A DNA stretch of 64,000 nt from Catalinimonas niigatensis (GTDB lineage Bacteria > Bacteroidota > Bacteroidia > Cytophagales > Cyclobacteriaceae): the NCBI RefSeq assembly GCF_030506285.1, contig NZ_CP119422.1, positions 6,497,501 to 6,561,500 on the forward strand. The letters run 5' to 3'. Within the stretch, counting starts at the first letter, position 1. Every line of letters begins with the position of its first letter. Below are positions 4,763 through 24,680 of the stretch, one piece after another. The position numbers and the translations under genes were made by a program. Below the pieces are notes generated by a model, which saw only the letters and a list, made by a program, of their open reading frames with translations, was not told the DNA's origin and did no database searches.

Positions 4763-5088
4763 ATGGTGAATATGCCTTTGTTGAACTAAACCTGCGGTAG
4801 CCTTTAGCAGGAGGTATTTTCATGATATCCTTATCTTGATGAAGGTAATTTAAACCAATTATATCATGAAAAAAAACACATCGTGCCAAGGGTGAAACCC
4901 TTGTAGGGAGAACCTGTCGTGAGGTTCCTGATTTTCTACCCTTCTACCAGAAACTGGAGAGAAGCTTCTCGGTTGCTGGCTATAGCCAGAGTACCCTGAC
5001 CAATTATTCCCGTTGTCTGGCCCAGATGGCTCAGTATTACAACATGAATCCTGTTCTTCTGGATGAAGATCGGACCGATTTCTATGAC

Positions 5089-6084
5089 TTATGCAAGCGA
5101 GTATCTATAATTTTTGTCATATTTTCGGTTGTTTCTCACTACTGCAAATATGCGTAAGACCAGTTTGTTTCTCACAGCATTAATCACTGACATTCTGTTC
5201 TTACCCTGTAATACTTTTCGCTGGTAGTACTTCTTTAGTTCTTCACAATGATTGATAGCCGACAGAGCAGACATGTGAAGAAGCGTTTTGACTGTTTTAT
5301 TGGCTAAATGGGATACTCGGTCTTTACCCCTGATACTAGTGCCTGATCGATATTGAAAGGGAACTACCCCGGCATAACAAGCATATTTTTTAGGGTCAGT
5401 AAAGTCTTTGAACTCATTGGTGGTAACAAGTATTTCTCTGGCTGTTACCGCCCCAATTCCTTCTACGCTGGTAACTAGATTGAATAGTCGATTGAGTTCT
5501 TCGTCCGATCGGATCAGTTCCTCTAGTTGCTTGTTCACTGCGGTGAGATCTTTTTCTAATCCCTTTAGGGAGTGCTGACAGCACAACTGCATTTTCTTCT
5601 GTAGGGTTTTAGTGAGAAATCGTTTACCCTCTTGTAGAGAAGATTTGAGTTGTTTTTTAGCGTTGATGAGTCGGGTGCGTAGTGCAGTGAGTGATTTGAG
5701 ATCTTTGATTACTTGGCGCGCAGGTTGCCAAAGCTTTGCATTATCTTGGTTTCTATAGGCATAAAAAGCGATACGTTCAGCATCTATCTTATCACTCTTA
5801 CCACGTTGCATTCCAGCAGAATGTTTGATACGCAAAGCTGACTCAAGCCAGATAGAAGACTGCTTCTCTGAGAGATAGTCGAGCAAGGGGTAGTTGTAGA
5901 TACCTGTATGCTCCATACAAAATAGGCTTTCCTCTAGCGCACAACCAGACTGTCTTACGAAGCTTTCAACTCCTTTGTTATTGTTCTCTGTCTGTAAGCG
6001 CAGTATTACCTTCCCGGCACTTATCAGACAAAAATCCAGCGTACTTTTTGAGACATCAATACCAATAAAGTGTTTGAAATTCAT
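5089..6084 (-). CDS. IS110-family DEDD transposase, copy A
   Basis: A 331-residue bridge-RNA-type recombinase starting at ATG 6084 (MNFKHFIGIDVS). The N-terminal RuvC-like DEDD domain has the first Asp in GIDVSKSTLDF (residue 10), a Glu in EHTGIYN and Asp residues in KSDKIDAERIAFYA. A coiled-coil middle segment (about residues 130-195) precedes the C-terminal Tnp_20 domain with VEGIGAVTA, YAGVVPFQYRSGTS (candidate catalytic Ser) and NKTVKTLLHMSA. The frame stays open for 67 codons upstream to a TTG at 6285, but that stretch overlaps the structured non-coding end and shows no family homology, so I use the later ATG. The protein acts with a structured RNA from the element's own left end. It is likely functional. 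Confidence 0.92.
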   Translation of the reverse strand: MNFKHFIGIDVSKSTLDFCLISAGKVILRLQTENNNKGVESFVRQSGCALEESLFCMEHTGIYNYPLLDYLSEKQSSIWLESALRIKHSAGMQRGKSDKIDAERIAFYAYRNQDNAKLWQPARQVIKDLKSLTALRTRLINAKKQLKSSLQEGKRFLTKTLQKKMQLCCQHSLKGLEKDLTAVNKQLEELIRSDEELNRLFNLVTSVEGIGAVTAREILVTTNEFKDFTDPKKYACYAGVVPFQYRSGTSIRGKDRVSHLANKTVKTLLHMSALSAINHCEELKKYYQRKVLQGKNRMSVINAVRNKLVLRIFAVVRNNRKYDKNYRYSLA

Positions 6085-6123
6085 AGTTTTGGATTTGACA
6101 GTTTTACATGTAGAGTCAATAAA

Positions 6124-6323
6124 CTTGTCCACCTTCAATACCTTGCTAATAGGTCTGGAACCTAAATTTCTATTTGAAGCCGAAGGACAAGCAATCCAGC
6201 AGAGAATTAAATCGGTCCATAGGTCTTCATCCTGGCCGAGACGATAAAGTGCCCCTGCTGGTATTGGCTCTTCTTGAGTGTGCAAATATGCATAACTCTA
6301 TCGAGTTACACACATTCGCACAC
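6124..6323 (-). ncRNA. Candidate IS110 bridge RNA, copy A
   Basis: This is the reverse-strand twin of the RNA candidate at 9031-9230 in copy B. On the minus strand it folds as three successive stem-loops: a 46-nt hairpin at 6323-6278 with a 21-bp stem and GATA loop, a stem CCAGCAG/CTGCTGG at 6261-6196 with a large internal loop, and a stem CTTGTCC/GGACAAG at 6191-6124 with an inner hairpin. In the second loop, CTCGGCC (6240-6234) repeats the element's left terminus and GGACCGATTT (6218-6209) is the exact complement of its right terminus. It ends 40 bases before the transposase ATG. The role as guide RNA is inferred from the known IS110/IS621 mechanism. Confidence 0.65.
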
Positions 6324-7098
6324 TTTAGTAGCAACAACTGCTTTCTTAGAATTTTACTACCCTACAAACCTAAAGGCCGACGCGGCAGGTGCTGGACTAT
6401 CTGCATTTTCTGAAGAAGCAAAAAAAGACACCTTCTGAGTCCTTTTTTAAGCATACAGTCTATGGTTTAAGGTATGCCTACCGGATGGAGGGCATGAAAG
6501 CCAAACGAATCATTTTACCCTCACTTGAACGGCCCAAAACCCTACCAGTAGTACTGAGCAAAGAGGAGATGCGAAGCCTGCTGCTGGCTCCTAAACTGCT
6601 GAGACATCGCCTGATCCTGGGTATGCTGTATGGATGTGGTCTGCGCTGCTTTGAACTCCGAAGATTACATATTAAGGATGTAGATTTTGACCGGTTGATG
6701 GTGCATGTCAGAAAAGGCAAGGGACGTAAAGATCGCTACCTGCCTTTAAGCAAGCACCTAGCAAGGGGGATAAAGACCTACATTGACAATGAACATCCTC
6801 AATTGTGGCTCCTCAACGGCAAAAATGCGGAAGGAAGAATCGTAGCTTTATCGCAAAGAGGCGTTCAGTGGATTGTCAGGGAATCCAGGAAAACCGCTGG
6901 TTTGGAAAAAGAGGTCACCGCACATACCCTTCGTCATACTTTTGCCACGCATCTACTAGAAGATGGCTTGGATATCATCAGCATCAAAGATCTGCTGGGC
7001 CATGCTCACCTGGAGACTACATTGATCTATCTACATGTATCTCAAATGGGAAGGCGCAGGCCATTCAGTCCTATGGATACGCTCTACCCCGATAAGTA

Positions 7099-8211
7099 GT
7101 GCGTCCCAAATATGAAGTAGCTGATGTACTGCAAATAAATAAGCATCAGCTCAGTAGCTACTACAGCAATAGCTGGCAGATAAGAACGCTGCATGCCCTT
7201 AGAAAATGCAGGACTGCTGATTTAGGTGGGCATGGGGATCAGTGCGATAGCTGTGGCAATTTGTCTCTCAGCTATAATAGCTGTCGCAATCGCCACTGCC
7301 CGAAATGCCAGGGAGAACAGCGCGAGGCATGGATACAGGCAAGGGAAAATGAACTCTTGCCTGTACCGTACTTTCATGTGGTTTTTACACTGCCAGAGCA
7401 AGTTAACCCACTATGCCTGTATGCACCTGCCAAAGTGTATCGTCTGCTCTTTAGTACCGCCTGGTCTGTGATGCAGAGCTTTGCCAAAGATGCCAAGCAC
7501 CTGGGGGCCAAGCCTGCTATGATCGCTGTACTACATACCTGGGGGCATAATCTGAGTTTACATCCACACCTTCACTGCATCGTTCCGGGTGGAGGCGTGA
7601 CTAGAAATGGTAAATGGAAGACTGCTAGGAATAAAGGAAAGTTTCTTTTCCCAGTAAAAGCCATGAGCAAGGTCTTCCGAGCAAGGTTCGTGGCTGGTCT
7701 AAGAAGAGAGTTTCCAGAGCAAGACAGAACCTCCTTTGCCAGTTTATTCAAAAAAGAGCGGGTGGTCTATGCCAAAAGACCTTTCCAGCATCCTAAATCG
7801 GTAGTAGAGTATCTTGGGCGTTATACTCATAAGATAGCCATTAGCAATCATCGGTTACTTAACCTTGATAACGGCCAGGTTACTTTCAGCTACAAGGATT
7901 ATCGCAAAGGAGCGCAGAAGTTGCAGATGAGTCTCTCTGACAATGAGTTCATCAGACGCTTCAGCCAGCATATCCTGCCCAGAGGTTTTGTTAGAATCAG
8001 GCATTACGGCTTCCTATCCAGTAGCTGGAAGTCTGCAAAGCTTCCTGATCTCCAGAGGAAGCTTGGACTCATTACCTCTTCTGATGATCAGAAGGAACCC
8101 GTATCTCATCGCAGGTGCTGCGCCTGTGGTAGCGGTATACTGCAAACGAAGAGTATGTTTTACGGACGAGCACCGCCGATAGTCTGGTTGGAACGCATCG
8201 CAGAGCAGTAA
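7099..8211 (+). CDS. IS91-family transposase
   Basis: A 370-residue rolling-circle type transposase. The N-terminal zinc-binding domain has Cys at 49, 52, 62, 67 and 70 (CDSC, then SCRNRHCPKC). The Y2_Tnp core carries the HUH metal motif in LHPHLHC (residues 154-160) and the candidate nucleophile Tyr in VEYLGRYTHKIAI (near residue 232-236). The start is GTG at 7099, whose G is the last base of the recombinase TAG stop, so the two genes are translationally coupled. The frame is intact to its stop at 8211, so this gene may still be active although its partner recombinase is split. IS91 enzymes nick one strand and move by rolling-circle transposition, which can carry along neighbouring DNA. Confidence 0.93.
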   Translation: MRPKYEVADVLQINKHQLSSYYSNSWQIRTLHALRKCRTADLGGHGDQCDSCGNLSLSYNSCRNRHCPKCQGEQREAWIQARENELLPVPYFHVVFTLPEQVNPLCLYAPAKVYRLLFSTAWSVMQSFAKDAKHLGAKPAMIAVLHTWGHNLSLHPHLHCIVPGGGVTRNGKWKTARNKGKFLFPVKAMSKVFRARFVAGLRREFPEQDRTSFASLFKKERVVYAKRPFQHPKSVVEYLGRYTHKIAISNHRLLNLDNGQVTFSYKDYRKGAQKLQMSLSDNEFIRRFSQHILPRGFVRIRHYGFLSSSWKSAKLPDLQRKLGLITSSDDQKEPVSHRRCCACGSGILQTKSMFYGRAPPIVWLERIAEQ

Positions 8212-8367: not shown

Positions 8368-9030
8368 TCAAATGCACTCCTCTCAAACCCTACCTAATCC
8401 CCATAATAGACATCCACGAGCAGGTTCAGTCAACACATATTCATGTTAGGCCGTTCCGGCCACACGAATCCTTAGTTGTTGCAACGAGTTTTTCTTTTCT
8501 AGGGATAGCTAGTTTTTAGGTTTTGATAGCATTAGGCATACCACATCCTCGGAATACATTTAGGATAAGGCAACCTACCCTGATTTCTGTGACTTGGTTT
8601 TCCATTTTGCGAGCCATTAGTGTATTACCTATCGTCATTTTATAGCGGTGCATTGCTGTCTCAGACAGGCTTCTTTGATGGTAGCCGACTTCCTTTTTCC
8701 ACTCTTTTCTACCAATCTGCTCTATTCTGTCAATAGCTTGATCTCTTTCCCCTAATCCGGGCAGATTATCTCTACTCTTTACCGCATTCTTAGGCGGGGG
8801 TACAATGGCTTTGGCCCCCATCTTGTTGACCGCTTTGCGTACCTTCTTCTTATCATAAGCACCATCTCCATAAAACGTATTCACCTTTCCTTCTACCTCT
8901 CCTAGCAGTGGCTCGGTTATAGCTGCATCATCTACTGAGTTCTCGGCCACCGTGGCAGTAAGCTCGCAACCGCTCGGCCTTTAGGTTTGTAGGGTAGTAA
9001 AATTCTAAGAAAGCAGTTGTTGCTACTAAA

Positions 9031-9230
9031 GTGTGCGAATGTGTGTAACTCGATAGAGTTATGCATATTTGCACACTCAAGAAGAGCCAATACCAGCAGG
9101 GGCACTTTATCGTCTCGGCCAGGATGAAGACCTATGGACCGATTTAATTCTCTGCTGGATTGCTTGTCCTTCGGCTTCAAATAGAAATTTAGGTTCCAGA
9201 CCTATTAGCAAGGTATTGAAGGTGGACAAG
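9031..9230 (+). ncRNA. Candidate IS110 bridge RNA, copy B
   Basis: Three adjacent stem-loops lie in the left end before the transposase. First, 9031-9076: GTGTGC...GCACAC with TAACTC/GAGTTA around a GATA loop. The nine middle positions all pair, four of them only as G-U, and this holds only for RNA of this strand. Second, 9093-9158: outer stem CCAGCAG/CTGCTGG, inner stem AGG/CCT. Its two single strands contain CTCGGCC (9114-9120), identical to the left terminus, and GGACCGATTT (9136-9145), the exact complement of the right terminus. Third, 9163-9230: outer stem CTTGTCC/GGACAAG, inner hairpin TAGGT/ACCTA. The layout of about 200 nt resembles the IS621 bridge RNA. The second loop would be donor-binding and the third a candidate target-binding loop, where I found no clear match to the targets. 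Confidence 0.68.
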
Positions 9231-9269
9231 TTTATTGACTCTACATGTAAAACTGTCAAATCCAAAACT

Positions 9270-10265
9270 ATGAATTTCAAACACTTTATTGGTATTGATG
9301 TCTCAAAAAGTACGCTGGATTTTTGTCTGATAAGTGCCGGGAAGGTAATACTGCGCTTACAGACAGAGAACAATAACAAAGGAGTTGAAAGCTTCGTAAG
9401 ACAGTCTGGTTGTGCGCTAGAGGAAAGCCTATTTTGTATGGAGCATACAGGTATCTACAACTACCCCTTGCTCGACTATCTCTCAGAGAAGCAGTCTTCT
9501 ATCTGGCTTGAGTCAGCTTTGCGTATCAAACATTCTGCTGGAATGCAACGTGGTAAGAGTGATAAGATAGATGCTGAACGTATCGCTTTTTATGCCTATA
9601 GAAACCAAGATAATGCAAAGCTTTGGCAACCTGCGCGCCAAGTAATCAAAGATCTCAAATCACTCACTGCACTACGCACCCGACTCATCAACGCTAAAAA
9701 ACAACTCAAATCTTCTCTACAAGAGGGTAAACGATTTCTCACTAAAACCCTACAGAAGAAAATGCAGTTGTGCTGTCAGCACTCCCTAAAGGGATTAGAA
9801 AAAGATCTCACCGCAGTGAACAAGCAACTAGAGGAACTGATCCGATCGGACGAAGAACTCAATCGACTATTCAATCTAGTTACCAGCGTAGAAGGAATTG
9901 GGGCGGTAACAGCCAGAGAAATACTTGTTACCACCAATGAGTTCAAAGACTTTACTGACCCTAAAAAATATGCTTGTTATGCCGGGGTAGTTCCCTTTCA
10001 ATATCGATCAGGCACTAGTATCAGGGGTAAAGACCGAGTATCCCATTTAGCCAATAAAACAGTCAAAACGCTTCTTCACATGTCTGCTCTGTCGGCTATC
10101 AATCATTGTGAAGAACTAAAGAAGTACTACCAGCGAAAAGTATTACAGGGTAAGAACAGAATGTCAGTGATTAATGCTGTGAGAAACAAACTGGTCTTAC
10201 GCATATTTGCAGTAGTGAGAAACAACCGAAAATATGACAAAAATTATAGATACTCGCTTGCATAA
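9270..10265 (+). CDS. IS110-family DEDD transposase, copy B
   Basis: Identical in sequence to the copy A protein (331 residues from ATG 9270). It has the RuvC-like DEDD domain with Asp10 in GIDVSKS, a central helical part, and a C-terminal Tnp_20 domain with YRSGTS and a conserved NKTVKTLLHMSALSAI helix. The two copies are identical at the protein level, so one transposed recently or gene conversion keeps them the same. The ATG is preferred over an upstream in-frame TTG at 9069 because the intervening bases form the structured non-coding end. It is expected to recombine element and target DNA under RNA guidance without free ends or host repair. Confidence 0.92.
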   Translation: MNFKHFIGIDVSKSTLDFCLISAGKVILRLQTENNNKGVESFVRQSGCALEESLFCMEHTGIYNYPLLDYLSEKQSSIWLESALRIKHSAGMQRGKSDKIDAERIAFYAYRNQDNAKLWQPARQVIKDLKSLTALRTRLINAKKQLKSSLQEGKRFLTKTLQKKMQLCCQHSLKGLEKDLTAVNKQLEELIRSDEELNRLFNLVTSVEGIGAVTAREILVTTNEFKDFTDPKKYACYAGVVPFQYRSGTSIRGKDRVSHLANKTVKTLLHMSALSAINHCEELKKYYQRKVLQGKNRMSVINAVRNKLVLRIFAVVRNNRKYDKNYRYSLA

Positions 10266-11010
10266 GTCATAGAAATCGGTCCGATCACAATCTCTTGGCT
10301 ACCCACATCAACTCCCAAGTGAAGTTTTCTCCATGTCCTACGCTTACTTGCCCCGTGCGTTCTTACCTTTCCACTCTCCTTCCCCAAACACTTTCAGCCC
10401 CGTACTATCTACCGCTATGTGCAGCTTTTGTCCCAAAGGACGATGACTTACTTTTACCTTCAAGGCTGAAGACCTTCGGCAAAGCGTACTATAATCAGGT
10501 ACAGCCAACTCTGAGAGTCCCATCAATGCAAAAATGCTCTTGATGAAGCCTGTGCATTGACGTAATGCAAGACCATACACTTGTTTAATAGTCATGTCTG
10601 GGTACTGCTTTTCACCACTACTTTACCTCCCTGAGATAGATCGCGCCAATAACGATACACCCTTTCTTCCAACCACAGGACTAAGCTACCACGGCGGCAC
10701 AATGATTCGTTATATGCTTTCCAATTTCTAGGTTTATAGTTATCTTTTCTCTCAGGCATGATTGGGATATTTGATTTGTGTCGTTATAAATCAAACATTT
10801 CTTCATCCATGTTTTGTTACGTTGCAACAAAGCCGGTGAATATAGAAATCATTAGGTAGATAGCACTAAAACAAAACTGAACAGTAGTTGTATGCTAAAT
10901 ATAACGTTACATAAATTTCCTTGTCCATAATTTTTGTAGTGGCTGGATTGAATAGACTAATCAAATTTTTTATGACTACGAAAAGATAAAAATAGTGTTT
11001 ATGTAGGAGT

Positions 11011-15030: not shown

Positions 15031-17319
15031 TTAATGTTGTAGTATTTGTTTTTTTTCTTCAATCACAAGATCCTTGTCAAATAGACTCAAATGGATAAAT
15101 TCTAAGTTACCTGGCCTTGATTTTAAATATAACGTTTTGCCCTCTTCACTTACGTCAAGTCTTGCAATTTCCTGTCCGTCTTTTTTTACTTGCCATGTTC
15201 CAGATTCCATGTTACATAACAAGATTTTATAAATCTGATTATCTTGATCAAGATTTAATTTTGCATGTGACAATAAACTTCCATTCTTACTAAAAGTAAC
15301 TACTCTATCAAGTACTTTTGCGCCTACTAGATTTCCACTGATAATTTTTTCAGCTCCCGGATCAGAAGTTCCCTGATCCATAACAGCCATCACATGTAAA
15401 AACTCGTCATCTTCACGTTTAACGGAAGGGGATATCTCCACTCTCCAACTAAATTCTTCAACCTGTCTGTTCGTAACGGTTCCTCCAGAATAATTTTTAC
15501 CCTGAATCAGATATTCTTGTCCTGCTCCTCCAATTTTACTAATTTCTGAGTTATCAGGCAGTAAAGTGTAAGACACTAATTTCCCATTCAAATTATCTTT
15601 TCTTAGTATGGTAGATTTGTTTCCTGAAACAGAAGGCTCATACATTGAATGAAGTAGAAAAGATTTTTTGAAAGAGGAATTTGTAGATATTACTTTATCA
15701 AACACTACGAAAATGCAAGGGTATTTAGCATCATCTGTATTAAAAGTTACCATAGAACGAGTCACTTGTTTAGCCCGATTTGTATTTACCCCATTCGAGT
15801 AGTTGTAGCCCCATGTGATATCTCCACTAATATAACTAAACTCTGGCTTAAAACTTTCAGGACCAAATTCATGGGCAATGATTTTGCCGTATTGATAACC
15901 ATTTCTGGGATCAATGAGCTCATTCAATGATCTTGGATTTACGTTGTTATTTAGAGGCCATCTTGCCCCACCGTCTACCTGAGTATTAGACATTGTACCA
16001 CCACTATATTTTTCATTAGGATCATAGATTAACAAACCGTTGTGTGCAATGGTAGACCTATAATAGTTTCTCCAATGGATTGAATTATAATCACTATCAG
16101 ATCCGTCTTGATACAATCCTGTATCACCCGTCAAATTACCTTTATAATAAATCTGAAAAGTACCAAAATCTTTATGTTGATGATTACCCCAATAATATTG
16201 GCCAATTCGCATGTGTACTATGGCAGTGGGTGAATTATAGGAGTTCAAATCCCATCCTGTACGAGCAATCATTTCTCCTCCTACGGGTTCAGGAAAATAT
16301 TTTGTCAGAGGAAGGGTTTCTAGAGATTTAGTTTGGGTATTAGAGGATCGTAGTAAAAACTTAACAAACAAATTTACTACATCTTCATTATACTCTCTAA
16401 AAGGCCCTGTCTCGTGAAAGTATCTAAGATAGGGATCATTGTAATACTCAGCAGTTAAGCCTAAAGCTGCTTTAGAATTTGTATATACACCGGTGTCATC
16501 ACTAACATCTCCTCTTCTAATAAGTTGTTTATCAGGACGATAGCTATATAATAATTGATATGGTACATATTGTTGTTCAGGAATAAAAGCATCTTTTCCA
16601 GTGAGTTTTTTCAAGAGCCAAGCTACCTGCATCTCATGTGTAAAATATCCGGCCAAATAATGACCCTGAGGGTGCATCGCTGATGCATAATAAAAATTTC
16701 TTGATGCTTGCACATGTTTAAAAAATATATCCATTGCAGTATCAAAAATGACAGGGTTTTCATTATAAATAGCTAACCCTGCAATAATTTGATTCCAATA
16801 CCAACCAGCAGCACTATGACCAGTAAGAACGTTATCTTCACTTCTTACAGGCCAATATGGAGGATGAGAGTTATGTATTCTTGCAAATTCTTTTTGAAAT
16901 TCTTGTTTTTGACTAGAAGTAAGCAAGTCGTAACACCAATCATAAACGCATGCTCCTTTAAAAACTGAATTCCACAATTTACGACCATTTGCTGATGCAT
17001 CGGTTGATTTAAGTTCAGAAAGAGCCGCTTGTATAGCACTCTGACCTACTGATTTGTTTTGATCAAGCAAGTAAATCAGAGCTTTAAAGATAGGTTGAGA
17101 GCTTTTATAAATAGTGTTTTTTAGCTGAGAATACTCTGATTTGTTTATTTTCTCCCTAAGTTTTGGGATATCTTCGGACATGATAAATACTCTAGGATGA
17201 GCTTTAGTTACTGTTGGTTTAGTGGTTATAATTTGTGCAGAAACCCTGCTTGATATAACTATTAAACAGAAAATGCTTAAGAGTAGGTTTATTTTCCTGA
17301 ACTTTCTGTTGGTTTTCAT
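15031..17319 (-). CDS. Exported heparinase II/III-like polysaccharide lyase
   Basis: About 762 residues from the preferred ATG at 17319, which begins a clear Sec signal peptide (MKTNRKFRKINLL then LSIFCLIVISSRVSAQ). An in-frame ATG at 17367 would add 16 unsupported residues. The N-terminal part is an alpha/alpha toroid of the alginate/heparinase lyase type (HPRVFI opening, WYWNQIIAGLAIYN, FTHEMQVAWLL). The C-terminal part is a heparinase II/III-like beta-domain with GGEMIARTGWD, HMRIGQYYWGNHQHKDFGTF and IAHNGLLIYDP. Such enzymes cleave uronic-acid-containing polysaccharides by beta-elimination in the periplasm or outside. Sitting beside a biosynthetic locus, it may trim or release the cell's own polymer, as alginate lyases do in alginate operons. 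The substrate is unknown. Confidence 0.85.
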   Translation of the reverse strand: MKTNRKFRKINLLLSIFCLIVISSRVSAQIITTKPTVTKAHPRVFIMSEDIPKLREKINKSEYSQLKNTIYKSSQPIFKALIYLLDQNKSVGQSAIQAALSELKSTDASANGRKLWNSVFKGACVYDWCYDLLTSSQKQEFQKEFARIHNSHPPYWPVRSEDNVLTGHSAAGWYWNQIIAGLAIYNENPVIFDTAMDIFFKHVQASRNFYYASAMHPQGHYLAGYFTHEMQVAWLLKKLTGKDAFIPEQQYVPYQLLYSYRPDKQLIRRGDVSDDTGVYTNSKAALGLTAEYYNDPYLRYFHETGPFREYNEDVVNLFVKFLLRSSNTQTKSLETLPLTKYFPEPVGGEMIARTGWDLNSYNSPTAIVHMRIGQYYWGNHQHKDFGTFQIYYKGNLTGDTGLYQDGSDSDYNSIHWRNYYRSTIAHNGLLIYDPNEKYSGGTMSNTQVDGGARWPLNNNVNPRSLNELIDPRNGYQYGKIIAHEFGPESFKPEFSYISGDITWGYNYSNGVNTNRAKQVTRSMVTFNTDDAKYPCIFVVFDKVISTNSSFKKSFLLHSMYEPSVSGNKSTILRKDNLNGKLVSYTLLPDNSEISKIGGAGQEYLIQGKNYSGGTVTNRQVEEFSWRVEISPSVKREDDEFLHVMAVMDQGTSDPGAEKIISGNLVGAKVLDRVVTFSKNGSLLSHAKLNLDQDNQIYKILLCNMESGTWQVKKDGQEIARLDVSEEGKTLYLKSRPGNLEFIHLSLFDKDLVIEEKKQILQH

Positions 17320-17591
17320 ATGATGCATTTTATTTGGTATACAAACAGTCACATATGTTTCAAACATAAAGCCAAGGCCTACCCTGATTATGAAGTTTTG
17401 AAATGGTTTATTACATATACAAAAAATTATACTAACTAAATAAATTACAATTATAAATCAATAAAATATATGAAAAGTTATATATTTAAGATATTAATGA
17501 AATGGTGTCTGTATTCTTATTGATGTCATTGCTAATAATTTTTAATACAGCATTTTATAACTACATACCAGACTTTTATGCATGAGCATAA

Positions 17592-17621
17592 AAAAAGCGG
17601 CATGTACACATGCCGCTTTTT
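17592..17621. terminator. 14-bp stem terminator
   Basis: Arms 17592-17605 and 17608-17621 (AAAAAGCGGCATGT and its complement) surround a 2-base centre. The GC-rich core with A and T tails makes a strong bidirectional terminator. It lies 29 bases downstream of the minus-strand PF14099-like lyase gene and ends it. The rest of the 17368-17649 gap is AT-rich, and no other feature is seen in it. Confidence 0.85.
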
Positions 17622-17649
17622 GTGAAAGATTCTCGAGGATATATATTCT

Positions 17650-19299
17650 TTACCAGTTGTTAGGAACATAAACTTTCAAATAATCTACGTAAGCTTCCTG
17701 AAGTTTAGAACCGCTAAAATCTCCGTTTTTCCAAGAAGCATTGTATAATCCGAATTTGATGTAAGGAGCTTGATCGTCTTTACATCCGGTAGGACCATTG
17801 TATGAGTAAAAAAGATCTCCATTTTTATATACCCTGATAAATCCGCTATTGTTGTAAGACCACTTTATATGATAGGTCCATTTAACCCACCTATTTTTAT
17901 CAGTGTCATATTTAGTATACCCAGAACCAAAACCTCTATTGTTAAAGTCAGATCCGGATCTTATTTTCTCTCCATTTGCAGCAAAGTGGGTATCTACAGA
18001 ACCTTCTCCATTTCTGTTGGTAGTAAAATTCCTCGCATAATGCTGTTTTGACCAATAATGATCTCCCCAAATACGCATAGTGAAAGCACCTTGTCTTGAC
18101 ACTGTATAATCATTTTTTGCACCAAAAAAAGACGTCCAATCAGAACCAGTCTGATGATTTGAGGAAAACTTCATTCTTACTTCATAAACATATTCTTTAT
18201 TCCAGTTTGCCTCAAAACCATTGCTGGCATCGAAATATGGGTAAGGTAAGTCACGTGGAATTAACTCCTGACGGTAACTATTTTTTGGGCCAGTAGGCGT
18301 AATTCTGAACCGATAAGCTTTCACTCCATCCACTGAAACGATCTGGCCATCCTGACGACCTAATTTATGGGTTTGTAAGCCACCCTGACTCCCATTTTCA
18401 AAATCATAAGTTTTGATAAGTTTCATGTTTGATAATGTAGAGGGGCCGTCATTATCATCGGAACCACTATCATCACCTGAACCATTATCATCATCAGATT
18501 CATCATCATCAGGAGTAGGACTTTCACTGGGAGAAGAAGGTGAGGAAGATCCTGGACGGAATATTTCAGAACGTATATATCCACTGTTCCAACGGGCATA
18601 AATCTGATAGTATTTAGATTGTGGATTGCTAATACGGAATTTCATAGTTAATACTTTTTCAGAAGAGTTCAAACGAGGAACAATGTTCTCTTTGGTACGC
18701 TCTCCATTAACCATCAATTCATAGCCACCTTCAGGCTTTTGTGGCGCAGAAAAATTAACGAATGTAATTACAACGTCCGAACCATCGATAGACACGTCAC
18801 TGATTACGGGTTGTTTAAGGTTAGAAGGCGCTTTAACATCAGATGTACCAGTAGAGGTTCTTGAAGAACTTGAAGAAGTTGATTCTCCACTAAGGCTTTC
18901 ATTGGCATCCAATGCATTGGAACTGAGATATCCACTGTTCCACCTTGCATAAACTTGATAGTTTTTACTTGCGGCATCTCCTATGTTGAATACCATAGTG
19001 AGATTTTTTTCATTAGAATCTAATCTTGGAGTATAGGTATTTCCGGTTCTTTTACCGTTTACCATTAACTCATAGCCACCTTCTGGTTTGTTGGGTGAAG
19101 CATGATTAGTAAATTCCAGGGTCACTTTTGTGCCATCTGTTGTGACTCTAGTAAGAACGGGCTGTCTAGGATTTAGTATCTCAACACTTTCTGAAGAAAG
19201 ATTTACATCAGAAAAATCACTTGAGAGAATGTCATCCTCGGCGCAATTGGTTAAGCCGATTAATAAGAAGAGTAAGCAGGTAATAGAAAAGTGCTTCAT
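17650..19299 (-). CDS. Lipoprotein polysaccharide lyase-like protein with two repeated beta domains
   Basis: From ATG 19299 the N-terminus is MKHFSITCLLFLLIGLTNC, a lipoprotein signal with lipobox LTNC, so the mature protein is a lipoprotein. An upstream in-frame ATG at 19323 is less likely. Two about 82-residue repeats follow, each with GGYELMVNG and YARWNSGY. A Ser/Asp-rich linker (about 265-300) leads to a C-terminal jelly-roll domain with MKFSSNHQTGSDW, typical of the PF14099 polysaccharide lyase group that includes heparin lyase I. The repeats look like fibronectin or carbohydrate-binding modules. It is encoded next to the heparinase-like enzyme, same strand, with its own terminator. A beta-elimination role on the local polysaccharide is inferred. 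Confidence 0.78.
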   Translation of the reverse strand: MKHFSITCLLFLLIGLTNCAEDDILSSDFSDVNLSSESVEILNPRQPVLTRVTTDGTKVTLEFTNHASPNKPEGGYELMVNGKRTGNTYTPRLDSNEKNLTMVFNIGDAASKNYQVYARWNSGYLSSNALDANESLSGESTSSSSSRTSTGTSDVKAPSNLKQPVISDVSIDGSDVVITFVNFSAPQKPEGGYELMVNGERTKENIVPRLNSSEKVLTMKFRISNPQSKYYQIYARWNSGYIRSEIFRPGSSSPSSPSESPTPDDDESDDDNGSGDDSGSDDNDGPSTLSNMKLIKTYDFENGSQGGLQTHKLGRQDGQIVSVDGVKAYRFRITPTGPKNSYRQELIPRDLPYPYFDASNGFEANWNKEYVYEVRMKFSSNHQTGSDWTSFFGAKNDYTVSRQGAFTMRIWGDHYWSKQHYARNFTTNRNGEGSVDTHFAANGEKIRSGSDFNNRGFGSGYTKYDTDKNRWVKWTYHIKWSYNNSGFIRVYKNGDLFYSYNGPTGCKDDQAPYIKFGLYNASWKNGDFSGSKLQEAYVDYLKVYVPNNW

Positions 19300-19323
19300 G
19301 GAATAGTGTTTTTTAACTTTCAC

Positions 19324-22414: not shown

Positions 22415-23539
22415 ATGTCAACAATACAGGATTTTTTATTAAAGACTTTGAGCGGTGTAGAAACTGCTTACGACCAATCTTCTTTTTATGTGAAAAAACA
22501 GCTCAATTTGCTAGATCCTCTTACCATTCAGGCGTATATGGGGTTTGGCAATGCCCAAAAGGTATTGATTACCGGACGTGTACTGGAGGCTGAAGGAAAA
22601 AAGTCCCTGCAAGAAGGAGTAAGCATATGGAAGAATATTCAAACCATGTACCGACGGTACGAAAGTGATGAAGTACCTCATGCCCGGGTGAAAGTGCTTT
22701 TTCAGGGACTGGAACAAGTCGTTAAGACCGATAGCGAAGGGTACTTCCATGCTATGCTGGAAGATTTTGAGTTAAACAGCACAGGCAAAGAATGGTACGA
22801 CATATACTTTGAGTTGCTGGATGAAGTGTACCCTGAACAGGGGGAGGTGAAAGGACAAGGAAAGGTATTGATCCCCAGTAAAAGTGAGTATGGTGTCATT
22901 TCTGATGTCGATGATACCATTCTGCTTTCCCGTTCATCTGATTTGATTAAGAAGGCGCAGCTTACTTTTTTCAACAATGCCCATACCAGAACTCCTTTTG
23001 CTGGTGTCTCCGCTTTGTATCAGGCATTACAGGCAGGCAGCAATGGACAACATCAAAACCCTATTTTTTATGTCTCCAGCAGTCCCTGGAACCTTTATGA
23101 GTTGCTCCACCATTTCTGTGAGGTACATGAGATTCCTGAAGGCCCCTTATTACTCAAAGATTTAGGTATTGACAAAGACACTTTTATCAAAAGTGGGCAT
23201 GGAAAACATAAAGTAGCACAGATTACTACCCTGTTTCTGCTCTATCCTGATATTCAATTTATTTTGGTGGGTGACAGCGGGCAAAAAGATCCTGAAATTT
23301 ATGAGTTTCTTAGCCGCAAATATCCTGACCGTATCAAAGCTATTTATATTCGTGATGTAACTTCACCCAAAAGAGATAAGGATGTAAAAGCGATTGCTAA
23401 AAAGGTGAAAGCCAGAGGTATTGATGTGATTTTGGCTGAAGATACCAGTAGGGCTGCCCTGCATGCCTATGAAAAGGGTTGGATTATGCGTGATAGCGTT
23501 GAACAAGTAAATGCAAAAGTAGAAGAGGAGAAAAAATAA
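22415..23539 (+). CDS. App1-family phosphatidate phosphatase-like protein, paralogue 1
   Basis: A 374-residue protein with a C-terminal App1 (DUF2183) catalytic domain. The HAD-like nucleophile motif is SDVDDT (Asp164, Asp166). Downstream come FYVSSSPWNLYELL and FILVGDSGQKDPEIY, the conserved App1 signature. Yeast App1 is a Mg-dependent phosphatidate phosphatase acting at actin-linked membranes; bacterial members are mostly uncharacterised. The first 155 residues form a beta-rich domain (VLITGRVLE, ARVKVLFQG, DSEGYFHAML) that repeats in the next gene. There is no signal peptide, so it is cytoplasmic. It is followed 10 bases later by a paralogue, so the two are co-expressed. Phosphatidate as substrate is inferred from the family. 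Confidence 0.85.
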   Translation: MSTIQDFLLKTLSGVETAYDQSSFYVKKQLNLLDPLTIQAYMGFGNAQKVLITGRVLEAEGKKSLQEGVSIWKNIQTMYRRYESDEVPHARVKVLFQGLEQVVKTDSEGYFHAMLEDFELNSTGKEWYDIYFELLDEVYPEQGEVKGQGKVLIPSKSEYGVISDVDDTILLSRSSDLIKKAQLTFFNNAHTRTPFAGVSALYQALQAGSNGQHQNPIFYVSSSPWNLYELLHHFCEVHEIPEGPLLLKDLGIDKDTFIKSGHGKHKVAQITTLFLLYPDIQFILVGDSGQKDPEIYEFLSRKYPDRIKAIYIRDVTSPKRDKDVKAIAKKVKARGIDVILAEDTSRAALHAYEKGWIMRDSVEQVNAKVEEEKK

Positions 23540-23549
23540 ACGCTATACT

Positions 23550-24680
23550 GTGGTCAGGAAAAAGTTTTTACTCAAAAAAATTGTACAGGCTGAAGGCCAT
23601 GTTGACCGCTGGAGACTAAACAGAAGAATTAGAAAAGGGCGTATGGGAAAGATCATTATCTTTCCCTATCGCGGATATGGCAATGAAAAGGAGGTGACCA
23701 TCATGGGACGGGTAATGGAAGACAAAGGGTTGGCCAAACCTAATGTATACGATAGCACATGGACCAACATCAAAGCCATGTTTCGCCGGTACCTCAGTAG
23801 GGAAATCCCTTTTGTTAATCTACAGGCTAATTTTCAGGGAGAAGAAGAGACTATCAGAACAGATGATGAAGGATACTTCCATTTGCATATGCCCTATCAA
23901 GAGCCCCTTCCGGCGGATCAACTATGGCATCATGTACACTTTGAACTTCAGGATGAACTGATACCTGACCAGCCAGAGATCAGTGGGATAGGAGAGGTGA
24001 TGATTCCTGATGTGAAATCTCATTTCGGCATTATCTCAGATATTGACGATACGGTATTGATATCCAAAACGACCAATCGCATTGAAATCATTCGTATGGC
24101 AATGGTGCATAATGCCACCACTCGCCTGCCTTTTCATGGGGTGTCAGCTTTCTACAATGCATTGCAAAGAGGGAGTGATGGAGAACGGCATAATCCTATT
24201 TTCTACGTCTCCAGCAGTCCCTGGAATATGTATGATTTACTGGAGGAATTTTTTAGACTGAATGATATTCCCAAGGGACCAATACTGCTCCGGGATATTG
24301 GGATCAGTGAAACTAAATTTCTCAAAGAAAAACATGCCAGCCATAAGTTAGAGAAGATCAGAAGCATACTCTCATTCTACCCTGACTTGCCTTTCATTTT
24401 GATAGGAGACAGTGGGCAGCATGATCCTGAAATTTATCAGGAAGTAGTCGATGCCTATCCCGGTAGGATTTTATCTATCTATATACGGGATGTTACTAAG
24501 CCTGAACGACGGGAAGAAGTGAAAAAAATTGCAGAAGAACTGGCGAAAAAGAAAGTAGACCTGATTATCAAGGAAGATACAGCGAAAGCTGCTACCCACG
24601 CTGAAAAAAGGAATTTTATTCAGCAAGGCAGCAGTGCTAAAATCATCAAAGGGATGAAAAAAGATGAGAAACTGCTTTAA
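23550..24680 (+). CDS. App1-family phosphatidate phosphatase-like protein, paralogue 2
   Basis: A 376-residue tandem paralogue of the preceding gene, with the same two-part layout: a beta-rich N-terminal domain (VTIMGRVMED, NIKAMFRRYL, DDEGYFHLHM) and a C-terminal App1 domain with SDIDDT (Asp164, Asp166), FYVSSSPWNMYDLL and FILIGDSGQHDPEIY. The first 35 residues are very basic (RWRLNRRIRKGRMGK), unlike paralogue 1, which could favour binding to acidic lipids. The start is GTG at 23550, ten bases after the previous stop; no ATG fits better before the conserved part. Its stop is only two bases from the stop of the convergent thioesterase gene. The two genes arose by duplication and have since diverged. 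Confidence 0.85.
   Translation: MVRKKFLLKKIVQAEGHVDRWRLNRRIRKGRMGKIIIFPYRGYGNEKEVTIMGRVMEDKGLAKPNVYDSTWTNIKAMFRRYLSREIPFVNLQANFQGEEETIRTDDEGYFHLHMPYQEPLPADQLWHHVHFELQDELIPDQPEISGIGEVMIPDVKSHFGIISDIDDTVLISKTTNRIEIIRMAMVHNATTRLPFHGVSAFYNALQRGSDGERHNPIFYVSSSPWNMYDLLEEFFRLNDIPKGPILLRDIGISETKFLKEKHASHKLEKIRSILSFYPDLPFILIGDSGQHDPEIYQEVVDAYPGRILSIYIRDVTKPERREEVKKIAEELAKKKVDLIIKEDTAKAATHAEKRNFIQQGSSAKIIKGMKKDEKLL

What the first reader, a model, noticed from the sequence alone, without database searches (positions are those of the whole stretch)
8973..9270. IS110 left end folds into a bridge-RNA-like structure whose second loop matches both element termini
Seen: three stem-loops in 200 nt. In the second, the two strands of one internal loop carry CTCGGCC (9114-9120, identical to the left terminus) and GGACCGATTT (9136-9145, exact complement of the right terminus AAATCGGTCC). 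A 10-base terminal match at random in a 300-base region is unlikely (my rough estimate is under 1 in 1000). The first hairpin pairs fully only as RNA of the transposase strand, using G-U pairs. Known: IS110-family recombinases such as IS621 use a bridge RNA from the left end with donor and target loops. Inference: this is that RNA for a new family member, and the donor loop precedes the candidate target loop. I did not verify which DNA strand each guide would pair with relative to IS621.
Basis: partly seen in the sequence, partly recalled or inferred. Interest (0 to 1): 0.75.

Follow-up and report, generated by a model that had tools for sequence, protein, structure and literature searches.

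The report
IS110 bridge RNA, loops relabelled
A jumping gene in a Bacteroidota chromosome carries the kind of guide RNA that tells such elements where to land, but the loop first thought to recognise the element itself most likely recognises the landing site, which looks like a tiny GC-rich repeat scattered through related genomes.

Summary
Window 8979-10277 is an IS110-family element, identical in three genomic copies, whose left end folds into three hairpins (z -6.2). Across 86 elements the second hairpin tracks the insertion junctions (0 of 2000 permutations). Left-junction bases differ between copies in 5 of 6 groups with identical RNAs, so they are target DNA. The third hairpin is the donor loop: its ATAGAAAT equals the right end, and this covaries over 12 element groups (9 words; 0 of 20000). 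The order is target loop then donor loop, as in IS621. Helices covary (21 of 23 pairs), DEDD and serine residues are conserved, and joining RE to LE puts TTG 20 nt before TAG in 57 of 59, like a Bacteroidota promoter. The element's targets resemble a GC-rich repeat of about 16 nt found in 14 of 60 genomes of its family (81 pattern hits, 2 in controls); such repeats also interrupt relatives' bridge RNAs. That micro-repeat is the most unusual thing here. No expression or activity was tested.

The parts
8979..10277 (+). IS110-family element, copy 1 (1299 bp counting one core C)
   Evidence: identical in three genomic copies; boundaries from multi-copy relatives
8970..8978 (+). left target (LT) plus core C: CCGCTCGG-C
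   Evidence: copies differ just outside TCGGC; LTG tracks this stretch in relatives
10277..10285 (+). core C plus right target (RT): C-GGTCCGAT
   Evidence: RTG complementary to C-GGTCC. The three own copies are identical here, so assignment to target rests on relatives: right junctions vary with the RTG and within one element in G211
8979..8989 (+). left end / right donor (RD): CTTTAGGTTTG, holding the -7 box TAGGTTTG (8982-8989)
9030..9077 (+). 5' stem-loop (H1), 22 bp
9093..9158 (+). target-binding stem-loop (H2, TBL)
   Evidence: outer and inner helices covary; junction covariation
9109..9119 (+). left target guide (LTG) ATCGTCTCGGC
   Evidence: 7 of its last 10 nt equal the left junction in each of the 3 copies; covariation in relatives
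9136..9144 (+). right target guide (RTG) GGACCGATT; GGACCG pairs core C + GGTCC, ATT could pair the last donor bases AAT (inference)
9163..9230 (+). donor-binding stem-loop (H3, DBL)
   Evidence: helices covary
9181..9188 (+). left donor guide (LDG) ATAGAAAT
   Evidence: identical to the right end; covaries over 12 groups
9202..9213 (+). right donor guide (RDG) CTATTAGCAAGG, split pairing with CCTTTAG
   Evidence: by inspection only; contiguous CTAAAGG in G265, changed together with the left end in G000b40
9270..10265 (+). DEDD transposase/recombinase (331 aa from ATG 9270)
   Evidence: PF01548 and PF02371; IS621 8wt6 E 2.6e-24, ISCro4 9t56 E 1.8e-25
9297..9299 (+). codon of D10 (D11 in IS621)
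9441..9443 (+). codon of E58 (E60 in IS621)
9561..9572 (+). codons of D98 and D101 (D102, D105 in IS621)
10008..10010 (+). codon of S247 (S241 in IS621)
10258..10260 (+). -33 TTG, 20 nt from TAGGTTTG once RE joins LE in the circle (lies in the transposase's last codons)
   Evidence: 57 of 59 elements keep TTG at this spacing
10269..10276 (+). right end / left donor (LD) ATAGAAAT
5077..6375 (-). second, identical copy of the element; its RNA model match at 6116-6270

Best explanation
8979-10277 is an IS110-group insertion sequence whose left end encodes a bridge RNA of about 200-240 nt. When the element circularises, RE joined to LE should form a Bacteroidota-type promoter (TTG-N20-TAGGTTTG) that drives the RNA (inferred). 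The RNA has a 5' stem-loop, then a target-binding loop (9093-9158), then a donor-binding loop (9163-9230). [quoted passage not shown] In the donor loop the LDG (ATAGAAAT) pairs the bottom strand of the element's right end and the RDG pairs the top strand of its left end (CCTTTAG, in two pieces). The DEDD/serine recombinase then exchanges strands around a short core that usually includes C. Shown by computation: sequence, structure covariation, covariation of the target-loop guides with the junctions and of the LDG with the right end, boundaries, conserved residues. By inspection only: the RDG. Inferred: transcription, RNA binding, circle formation and activity. The element's own targets look like GC-rich palindromic micro-repeats, (A)TCGG-ACCG-CCGA-(N)GCGG on the complementary strand.
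For: Left-junction 10-mers match the element's own RNA at 9 or more of 10 in 34 of 86 elements versus 2.1% for other elements' RNAs (0 of 2000 permutations); right-junction 6-mers are perfect in 29 of 59 versus 4.0% (0 of 2000); of 51 left matches of 8 or more of 10, 42 lie 66-76 nt before the LDG motif, i.e. in H2 (recount in 85). Right-end word versus H3: own sum 91, permuted mean 61.3, maximum 80, 0 of 20000; H2 control at chance. Left-junction bases differ between copies with identical RNAs in 5 of 6 groups. Helices: 88.8% of cells paired, 21 of 23 pairs with changes on both sides, covariation score reached by 0 of 500 shuffles. A covariance model matched 51 of 60 sources, and in 41 genomes gave 17 matches, 15 beside a transposase listed. 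PDB matches to IS621 and ISCro4 with DEDD and S conserved. TTG spacing in 57 of 59.
Against: Expression, RNP assembly and recombination are untested. The window element's own LTG matches its left targets only 7 of 10, and its right-target bases are the same in all three copies, so own copies alone do not prove they are target. Only 34 of 86 elements reach 9 of 10 on the left, and in only 32 of 86 does the own match exceed 95% of the others. The permutations do not control for relatedness. The RDG pairing is split and rests on inspection of few cases. TTG lies in transposase codons, so its conservation may be partly coding. No Rfam family reached its threshold.
Confidence: 0.92

Rival explanations
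1. One reading: the second hairpin is the donor-binding loop (left-end identity on its 5' strand, right-end complement on its 3' strand) and precedes a target loop in the third hairpin, an order opposite to IS621.
For: In this window CTCGGCC and GGACCGATTT do match the apparent termini; the right-hand match AAATCGGTCC is the same in all three own copies; the ends are near-palindromic, so both strand readings look possible.
Against: Copies with identical RNAs differ in the left-matched bases in 5 of 6 groups and in the right-matched bases in G211; H2 does not track the right-end word while H3 does; H3 guides are conserved while H2 guides vary with the insertion site.
Confidence: 0.02
2. The hairpins are a DNA or mRNA structure (transposase binding site or translation control) and the guide matches have no role in targeting.
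For: The region lies directly before the start codon, and the - strand also folds better than shuffles (z -3.96).
Against: Guide-junction covariation across 86 elements, with the RNA constant between copies; G-U-dependent pairing favours the transposase strand.
Confidence: 0.03
3. It is a bridge RNA, but the preference for GC-rich hairpin-like targets comes mainly from the protein or from DNA structure, with the guides only fine-tuning it.
For: Own LTG-LT match is only 7 of 10; GAT beyond the guide is shared by all three right targets; many relatives sit in GC-rich or palindromic sites.
Against: Relatives with different guides hit AT-rich sites that match their guides (e.g. L047).
Confidence: 0.1

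Closest known systems
IS621 bridge recombinase (IS110 group, E. coli; PDB 8wt6 series)
   Same: DEDD + serine recombinase; RNA in the left end; 5' stem-loop, target loop, donor loop in that order; strand logic of LTG, RTG, LDG, RDG; RE-LE junction promoter; palindromic repeats (REP) as targets. IS621 facts from PMC11208160 (abstract, sections 6 and 12, passages) and PMC11208158 (passages).
   Different: The shared core base is usually C (N-C on the left, T-C on the right) rather than N-T; Bacteroidota-type -33/-7 motifs rather than sigma70-like; RTG followed by a nearly constant GATT; target resembles a GC-rich repeat of about 16 nt that also occurs inside genes; recombinase only distantly related (phmmer E 2.6e-24).
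ISCro4 transposase (PDB 9t56)
   Same: Best-scoring solved recombinase by sequence (E 1.8e-25).
   Different: Only the protein was compared here; its RNA was not.
IS1111 group / seekRNA elements (PMC11187229, search listing only; PMC11208160 section 12)
   Same: Same recombinase superfamily and guide principle.
   Different: Their RNA lies in the right end and they have long subterminal inverted repeats; here the RNA is in the left end and 11 nt separate the stop codon from the core.
REP / REPIN and small dispersed repeats (PMC3116915, passages)
   Same: Short palindromes dispersed in genomes; REPs are known IS110 targets (passage of PMC11208160).
   Different: REPs are extragenic and RAYT-linked; the micro-repeats here are about 16 nt, occur inside non-coding RNAs and interrupted genes, and no mobilising gene was looked for.

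Membership tests
IS110 family (IS110 group) | DEDD RuvC-like domain plus Transposase_20 domain with conserved serine | tested here: met
   PF01548 E 1.1e-21, PF02371 E 2e-19; D10, E58, D98, D101, S247 line up with the IS621 residues by my reading of the alignment
IS110 family (IS110 group) | Structured ncRNA in the left end (IS110 group), not the right end (IS1111 group) | tested here: met
   291 nt from 8979 to the start codon with three hairpins; 11 nt between stop codon and core. Transcription not tested
[quoted passage not shown]
   (covariation tested for the two internal-loop hairpins, not for H1)
IS110 family (IS110 group) | First internal loop matches and covaries with target | tested here: met
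IS110 family (IS110 group) | Second internal loop matches and covaries with donor (RE-LE) | tested here: met
   LDG; RDG only by inspection
IS110 family (IS110 group) | Insertion with a short shared core and no other duplication | tested here: inconclusive
   shared C at both junctions in the own copies and most relatives; no true empty site of any of the three insertions was found: homologues of the gene hit by copy 2 lack the target repeat itself
IS110 family (IS110 group) | Scarless circular intermediate, RNA-guided recombination | not testable with these tools
   needs an experiment; the RE-LE promoter motif is consistent
IS621-like subfamily | Core dinucleotide CT (N-T) | tested here: not met
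   shared core base is usually C, preceded by a variable base on the left and T on the right
IS1111 group | RNA in the right end and subterminal inverted repeats of 7-17 bp | tested here: not met
   RNA is in the left end; inverted repeats were not searched for specifically

The most novel reading that the evidence does not exclude
Cytophagales-like genomes carry a family of about 16-nt mobile micro-elements defined by architecture rather than sequence: 4-nt arm, 4-nt loop, complementary 4-nt arm, 4-nt tail, with the loop end complementary to the tail end (two interleaved inverted repeats). They insert into genes and non-coding RNAs, including bridge RNAs. A lineage of IS110 elements, including this one, has tuned its target guides to them, with the recombination core next to the base shared by the two repeats.
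Probability: 0.4. Interest if true: 0.75.

Novelty: new member of a known kind. Interest (0 to 1): 0.45.

Why it matters
It extends bridge RNAs to a Bacteroidota IS110 lineage with its guides, core and junction promoter read from natural variation, which could supply recombinases with different core and target rules. It also shows how near-palindromic targets can make a target loop look like a donor loop. If the micro-repeats are mobile, they would be very small mobile DNAs and a natural landing pad for RNA-guided elements.

Tried and rejected
Donor-loop reading of H2: rejected. Taking TCGGCC as the true left end: first accepted from the three own copies, then dropped when relatives put the end at CTTTAG. 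A core of T, CG or TCGG was considered and dropped for a shared C. My note 5 put the core on the base shared by the two inverted repeats; rechecking puts it next to that base.

A fixed repeated sequence as target: CGCN{0,1}TCGGTCC was not enriched (G000: 5 hits against 25 for the reversed control; G001 1 against 23; G002 2 against 12), and CCGGGACGCCGG gave 4 hits in three genomes against 1 control. The relaxed pattern CGGNCCGCCGNNGCGG was enriched over 60 genomes, but G000 itself has only 2 hits. GC-island counts in the window were at the Markov expectation (9 versus 9.2), and a hairpin scan of the window found nothing above shuffles. IS5 homologues for an empty site of copy 1: of 295 genomes only the window's own matched at E 1e-20. 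Literature searches for the micro-repeat: none of the listed titles or abstract starts describes it; listings cover only the held open-access library, and of these hits only passages of PMC3116915 were read. PMC6006769 may bear on REP repeats and was not read.

Rows dropped: 172 elements became 106 after removing near-duplicates and those with under 250 nt upstream; 86 of 106 had the left-end motif and 59 also the right-end motif. Of 81 segments, 20 were left out for insertions or poor alignment, and 40 of the remaining 61 went into A1. The 11 pairs were hand-picked because they showed insertions. The right-end words were chosen by me, and part of the structure tested was drawn by eye on the same alignment.

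Full report
The element. The window is part of a 7.13-Mb single-contig genome (G000). A DNA search with the element gave three copies: two in the window (8979-10277 + and 5077-6375 -) and one at about 2.155 Mb. They are identical from 8974 to 10285. The transposase has the DEDD_Tnp_IS110 and Transposase_20 domains and matches the solved ISCro4 and IS621 recombinases (E 1.8e-25 and 2.6e-24). The residues that line up with the IS621 catalytic set D11, E60, D102, D105 and S241 (passages of PMC11208158) are D10, E58, D98, D101 and S247. The genome also holds three copies of a 40% relative and two of a 27% relative.

The observation. The + strand folds with z -6.2 and the - strand with z -3.96. H1 is an uninterrupted 22-pair stem on the transposase strand only. 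No Rfam family reaches its gathering score in the window.

Which loop does what. I collected relatives from genome contigs (66 loci) and from whole genomes (59 of 390 with a match at E 1e-60), giving 172 elements and 106 after removal of near-duplicates and short ones. Copies of one element within one genome show what belongs to the element and what to the site. Of the eight groups, six have RNAs identical in all copies (G000a, G220b, G211, G107, G265, G000b40). In five of these six (all but G220b) copies differ within the last 10 nt of the left junction. On the right, within core plus 5 nt, only G211 differs among the six; the window element's own three copies are the same there (CGGTCC). So the left side is shown to be target within single elements, while the right side rests mainly on G211 and on the comparison between elements.

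Quantified, the 10 nt ending at the left core match the element's own RNA at 9 or more positions in 34 of 86 elements, against 2.1% for other elements' RNAs; the summed score exceeds all 2000 permutations, and in 32 of 86 the own match exceeds 95% of the others. The right junction (core plus 5 nt, reverse complement) is perfect in 29 of 59 against 4.0%, again above all 2000 permutations. Of 51 left matches of 8 or more of 10 with a recognisable LDG motif, 42 lie 66-76 nt before it, in the second hairpin; 9 lie elsewhere (recount). Conversely, the right-end word of 12 multi-copy groups (9 distinct words) recurs in its own third hairpin: own sum 91, permuted mean 61.3, maximum 80, 0 of 20000; the second hairpin is at chance (56 versus 55.9). 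One group (G086) matched its own word only over 6 nt, no better than two other groups' RNAs. These permutations do not remove relatedness. The clearest full case, by inspection, is the 40% relative in the same genome (L157-L159): donor AATAGAAC-GC-ATCTTTAT, LDG ATAGAACGA, RDG reading GC-ACCTTTAT in reverse complement, LTG TGGCTTGC and target GGCTT-GC-ACTG.

Structure. On 40 aligned RNAs, four helices (23 pairs) are paired in 88.8% of cells; 21 pairs have changes on both sides; no shuffle of 500 reaches the covariation score, and sliding the partners destroys it. Part of this structure was drawn on the same alignment. A covariance model from it matched 51 of 60 sources (53 matches; the window and L117 carry a training sequence, the other 58 loci were not in the alignment). 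The weakest hits are doubtful, and one, in L079, lies downstream of its transposase; nine sources had none. In 41 whole genomes it found 17 matches in 10 genomes, 15 directly beside a transposase listed; the other two (G015, G032:C23) were not checked.

Relation to IS621. PMC11208160 (abstract, passages, sections 6 and 12) describes a 5' stem-loop, a poorly conserved first internal loop that binds target and a more conserved second loop that binds donor, with 5' guides pairing bottom strands and 3' guides pairing top strands. The present RNA follows this plan. In this group the shared core base is usually C: most left junctions read N-C-CTTTAG and right junctions AAAT-C-N (a few rows are motif mishits), where IS621 has N-T (passage). 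The RTG is followed by a nearly constant GATT; its ATT could pair the last donor bases AAT, reminiscent of IS621's handshake guide, which is inference. Joining RE to LE puts TTG 20 nt before TAG in 57 of 59 elements; 51 of 59 continue as TAGNTT (recount) and 23 of 59 have the full TANNTTTG, against 0.8% of random 25-mers. The TAG was part of the motif used to find the left end and TTG lies in transposase codons, so conservation alone is not proof. This fits the Bacteroidota consensus TAnnTTTG at -7 with TTTG near -33 (one passage of PMC7366714, which adds that the -33 motif was not found in Flavobacterium johnsoniae) and parallels the sigma70-like junction promoter of IS621.

The target. The three sites of this element read, on the complementary strand, TCGGACCGCCGA-(none, C or T)-GCGG. 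Copy 2 interrupts an integrase-like gene. Three homologues in the same genus (86-90% over the flank) and a fourth, more distant one (74% over about 100 nt) have one base where the reconstructed site of this genome has 17, so the target itself appears to be an extra GC-rich insert of 16 nt. Among 57 reconstructed target sites, those of the nearest relatives are the same kind of motif, while others are AT-rich or different palindromes. The pattern CGGNCCGCCGNNGCGG occurs 81 times in 14 of 60 genomes, against 2 for the reversed control, up to 29 in one genome but only 2 in G000. Four genomes that have it (G009, G029, G036, G060) are not among those with a relative of this transposase (E 1e-60, at most five candidates scored per genome), so the repeats probably do not depend on this IS lineage.

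The micro-repeat. Comparing 11 hand-picked pairs of homologous bridge-RNA regions gave 25 one-sided gaps of at least 10 nt, 10 of them exactly 16 nt (8 distinct sequences). All 10 have a 4-nt arm, 4-nt loop, complementary arm and 4-nt tail, with the last two loop bases complementary to the last two tail bases. In 170 sequences (897 kb, partly redundant, not fetched for this pattern), GC-rich hairpins with a 4-nt loop number 248 against 85 in one Markov control, and 74 against 12 have that loop-tail complementarity; loops of 5, 6 and 8 are near the control, loop 3 is raised (191 versus 134) without complementarity, and loop 7 shows 8 versus 1 complementary cases. These loci are rich in IS elements.

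Verdict. The finding is a genuine bridge RNA, by sequence and covariation, of a Bacteroidota member of the IS110 group, with its two loops relabelled. The system is known in kind. The micro-repeats are a side observation that deserves its own study.

Noticed in passing
bridge-RNA regions of L085, L016, L082, L052, L066, L077, L067, L062: Insertions of exactly 16 nt with arm-loop-arm-tail architecture inside homologous non-coding RNAs; the same or a similar insert sits at the same position in different lineages (L016 and L077; L085 and L066).
   Followed up: partly
L186 1501-1512 and L188 1501-1512: Two copies of a CCGGGACGCCGG-type micro-repeat elsewhere in the window's own genome; whether they lie in genes was not tested.
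   Followed up: no
window 8516-8950 and 10344-10595 (-): IS5-like transposase gene split by copy 1 of the IS110 element; DNA searches with its two parts found only this copy in the genome.
   Followed up: partly
window about 4900-5066 and 6389-8211: Integrase-like gene (Phage_integrase) split by copy 2, followed by an IS91-type Y2 transposase: a nest of mobile elements.
   Followed up: partly
L137-L145, junctions: Elements of G211 and G107 insert after words such as GCTAAC, GCCAAC, CACAAC, with similar right flanks; these look like integron attC sites (recalled motif, not tested).
   Followed up: no
L040, L041, L076 target sites: Three relatives sit in sites like GTCATTGCGAGGAACGAAGCAA, which look like another REP-like repeat.
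   Followed up: no
window 15031-19323 (-): Heparinase II/III-like and polysaccharide-lyase genes side by side.
   Followed up: no
window 22415-24680 (+): Two adjacent APP1-type phosphatidate phosphatase domain genes, possibly a tandem duplication.
   Followed up: no
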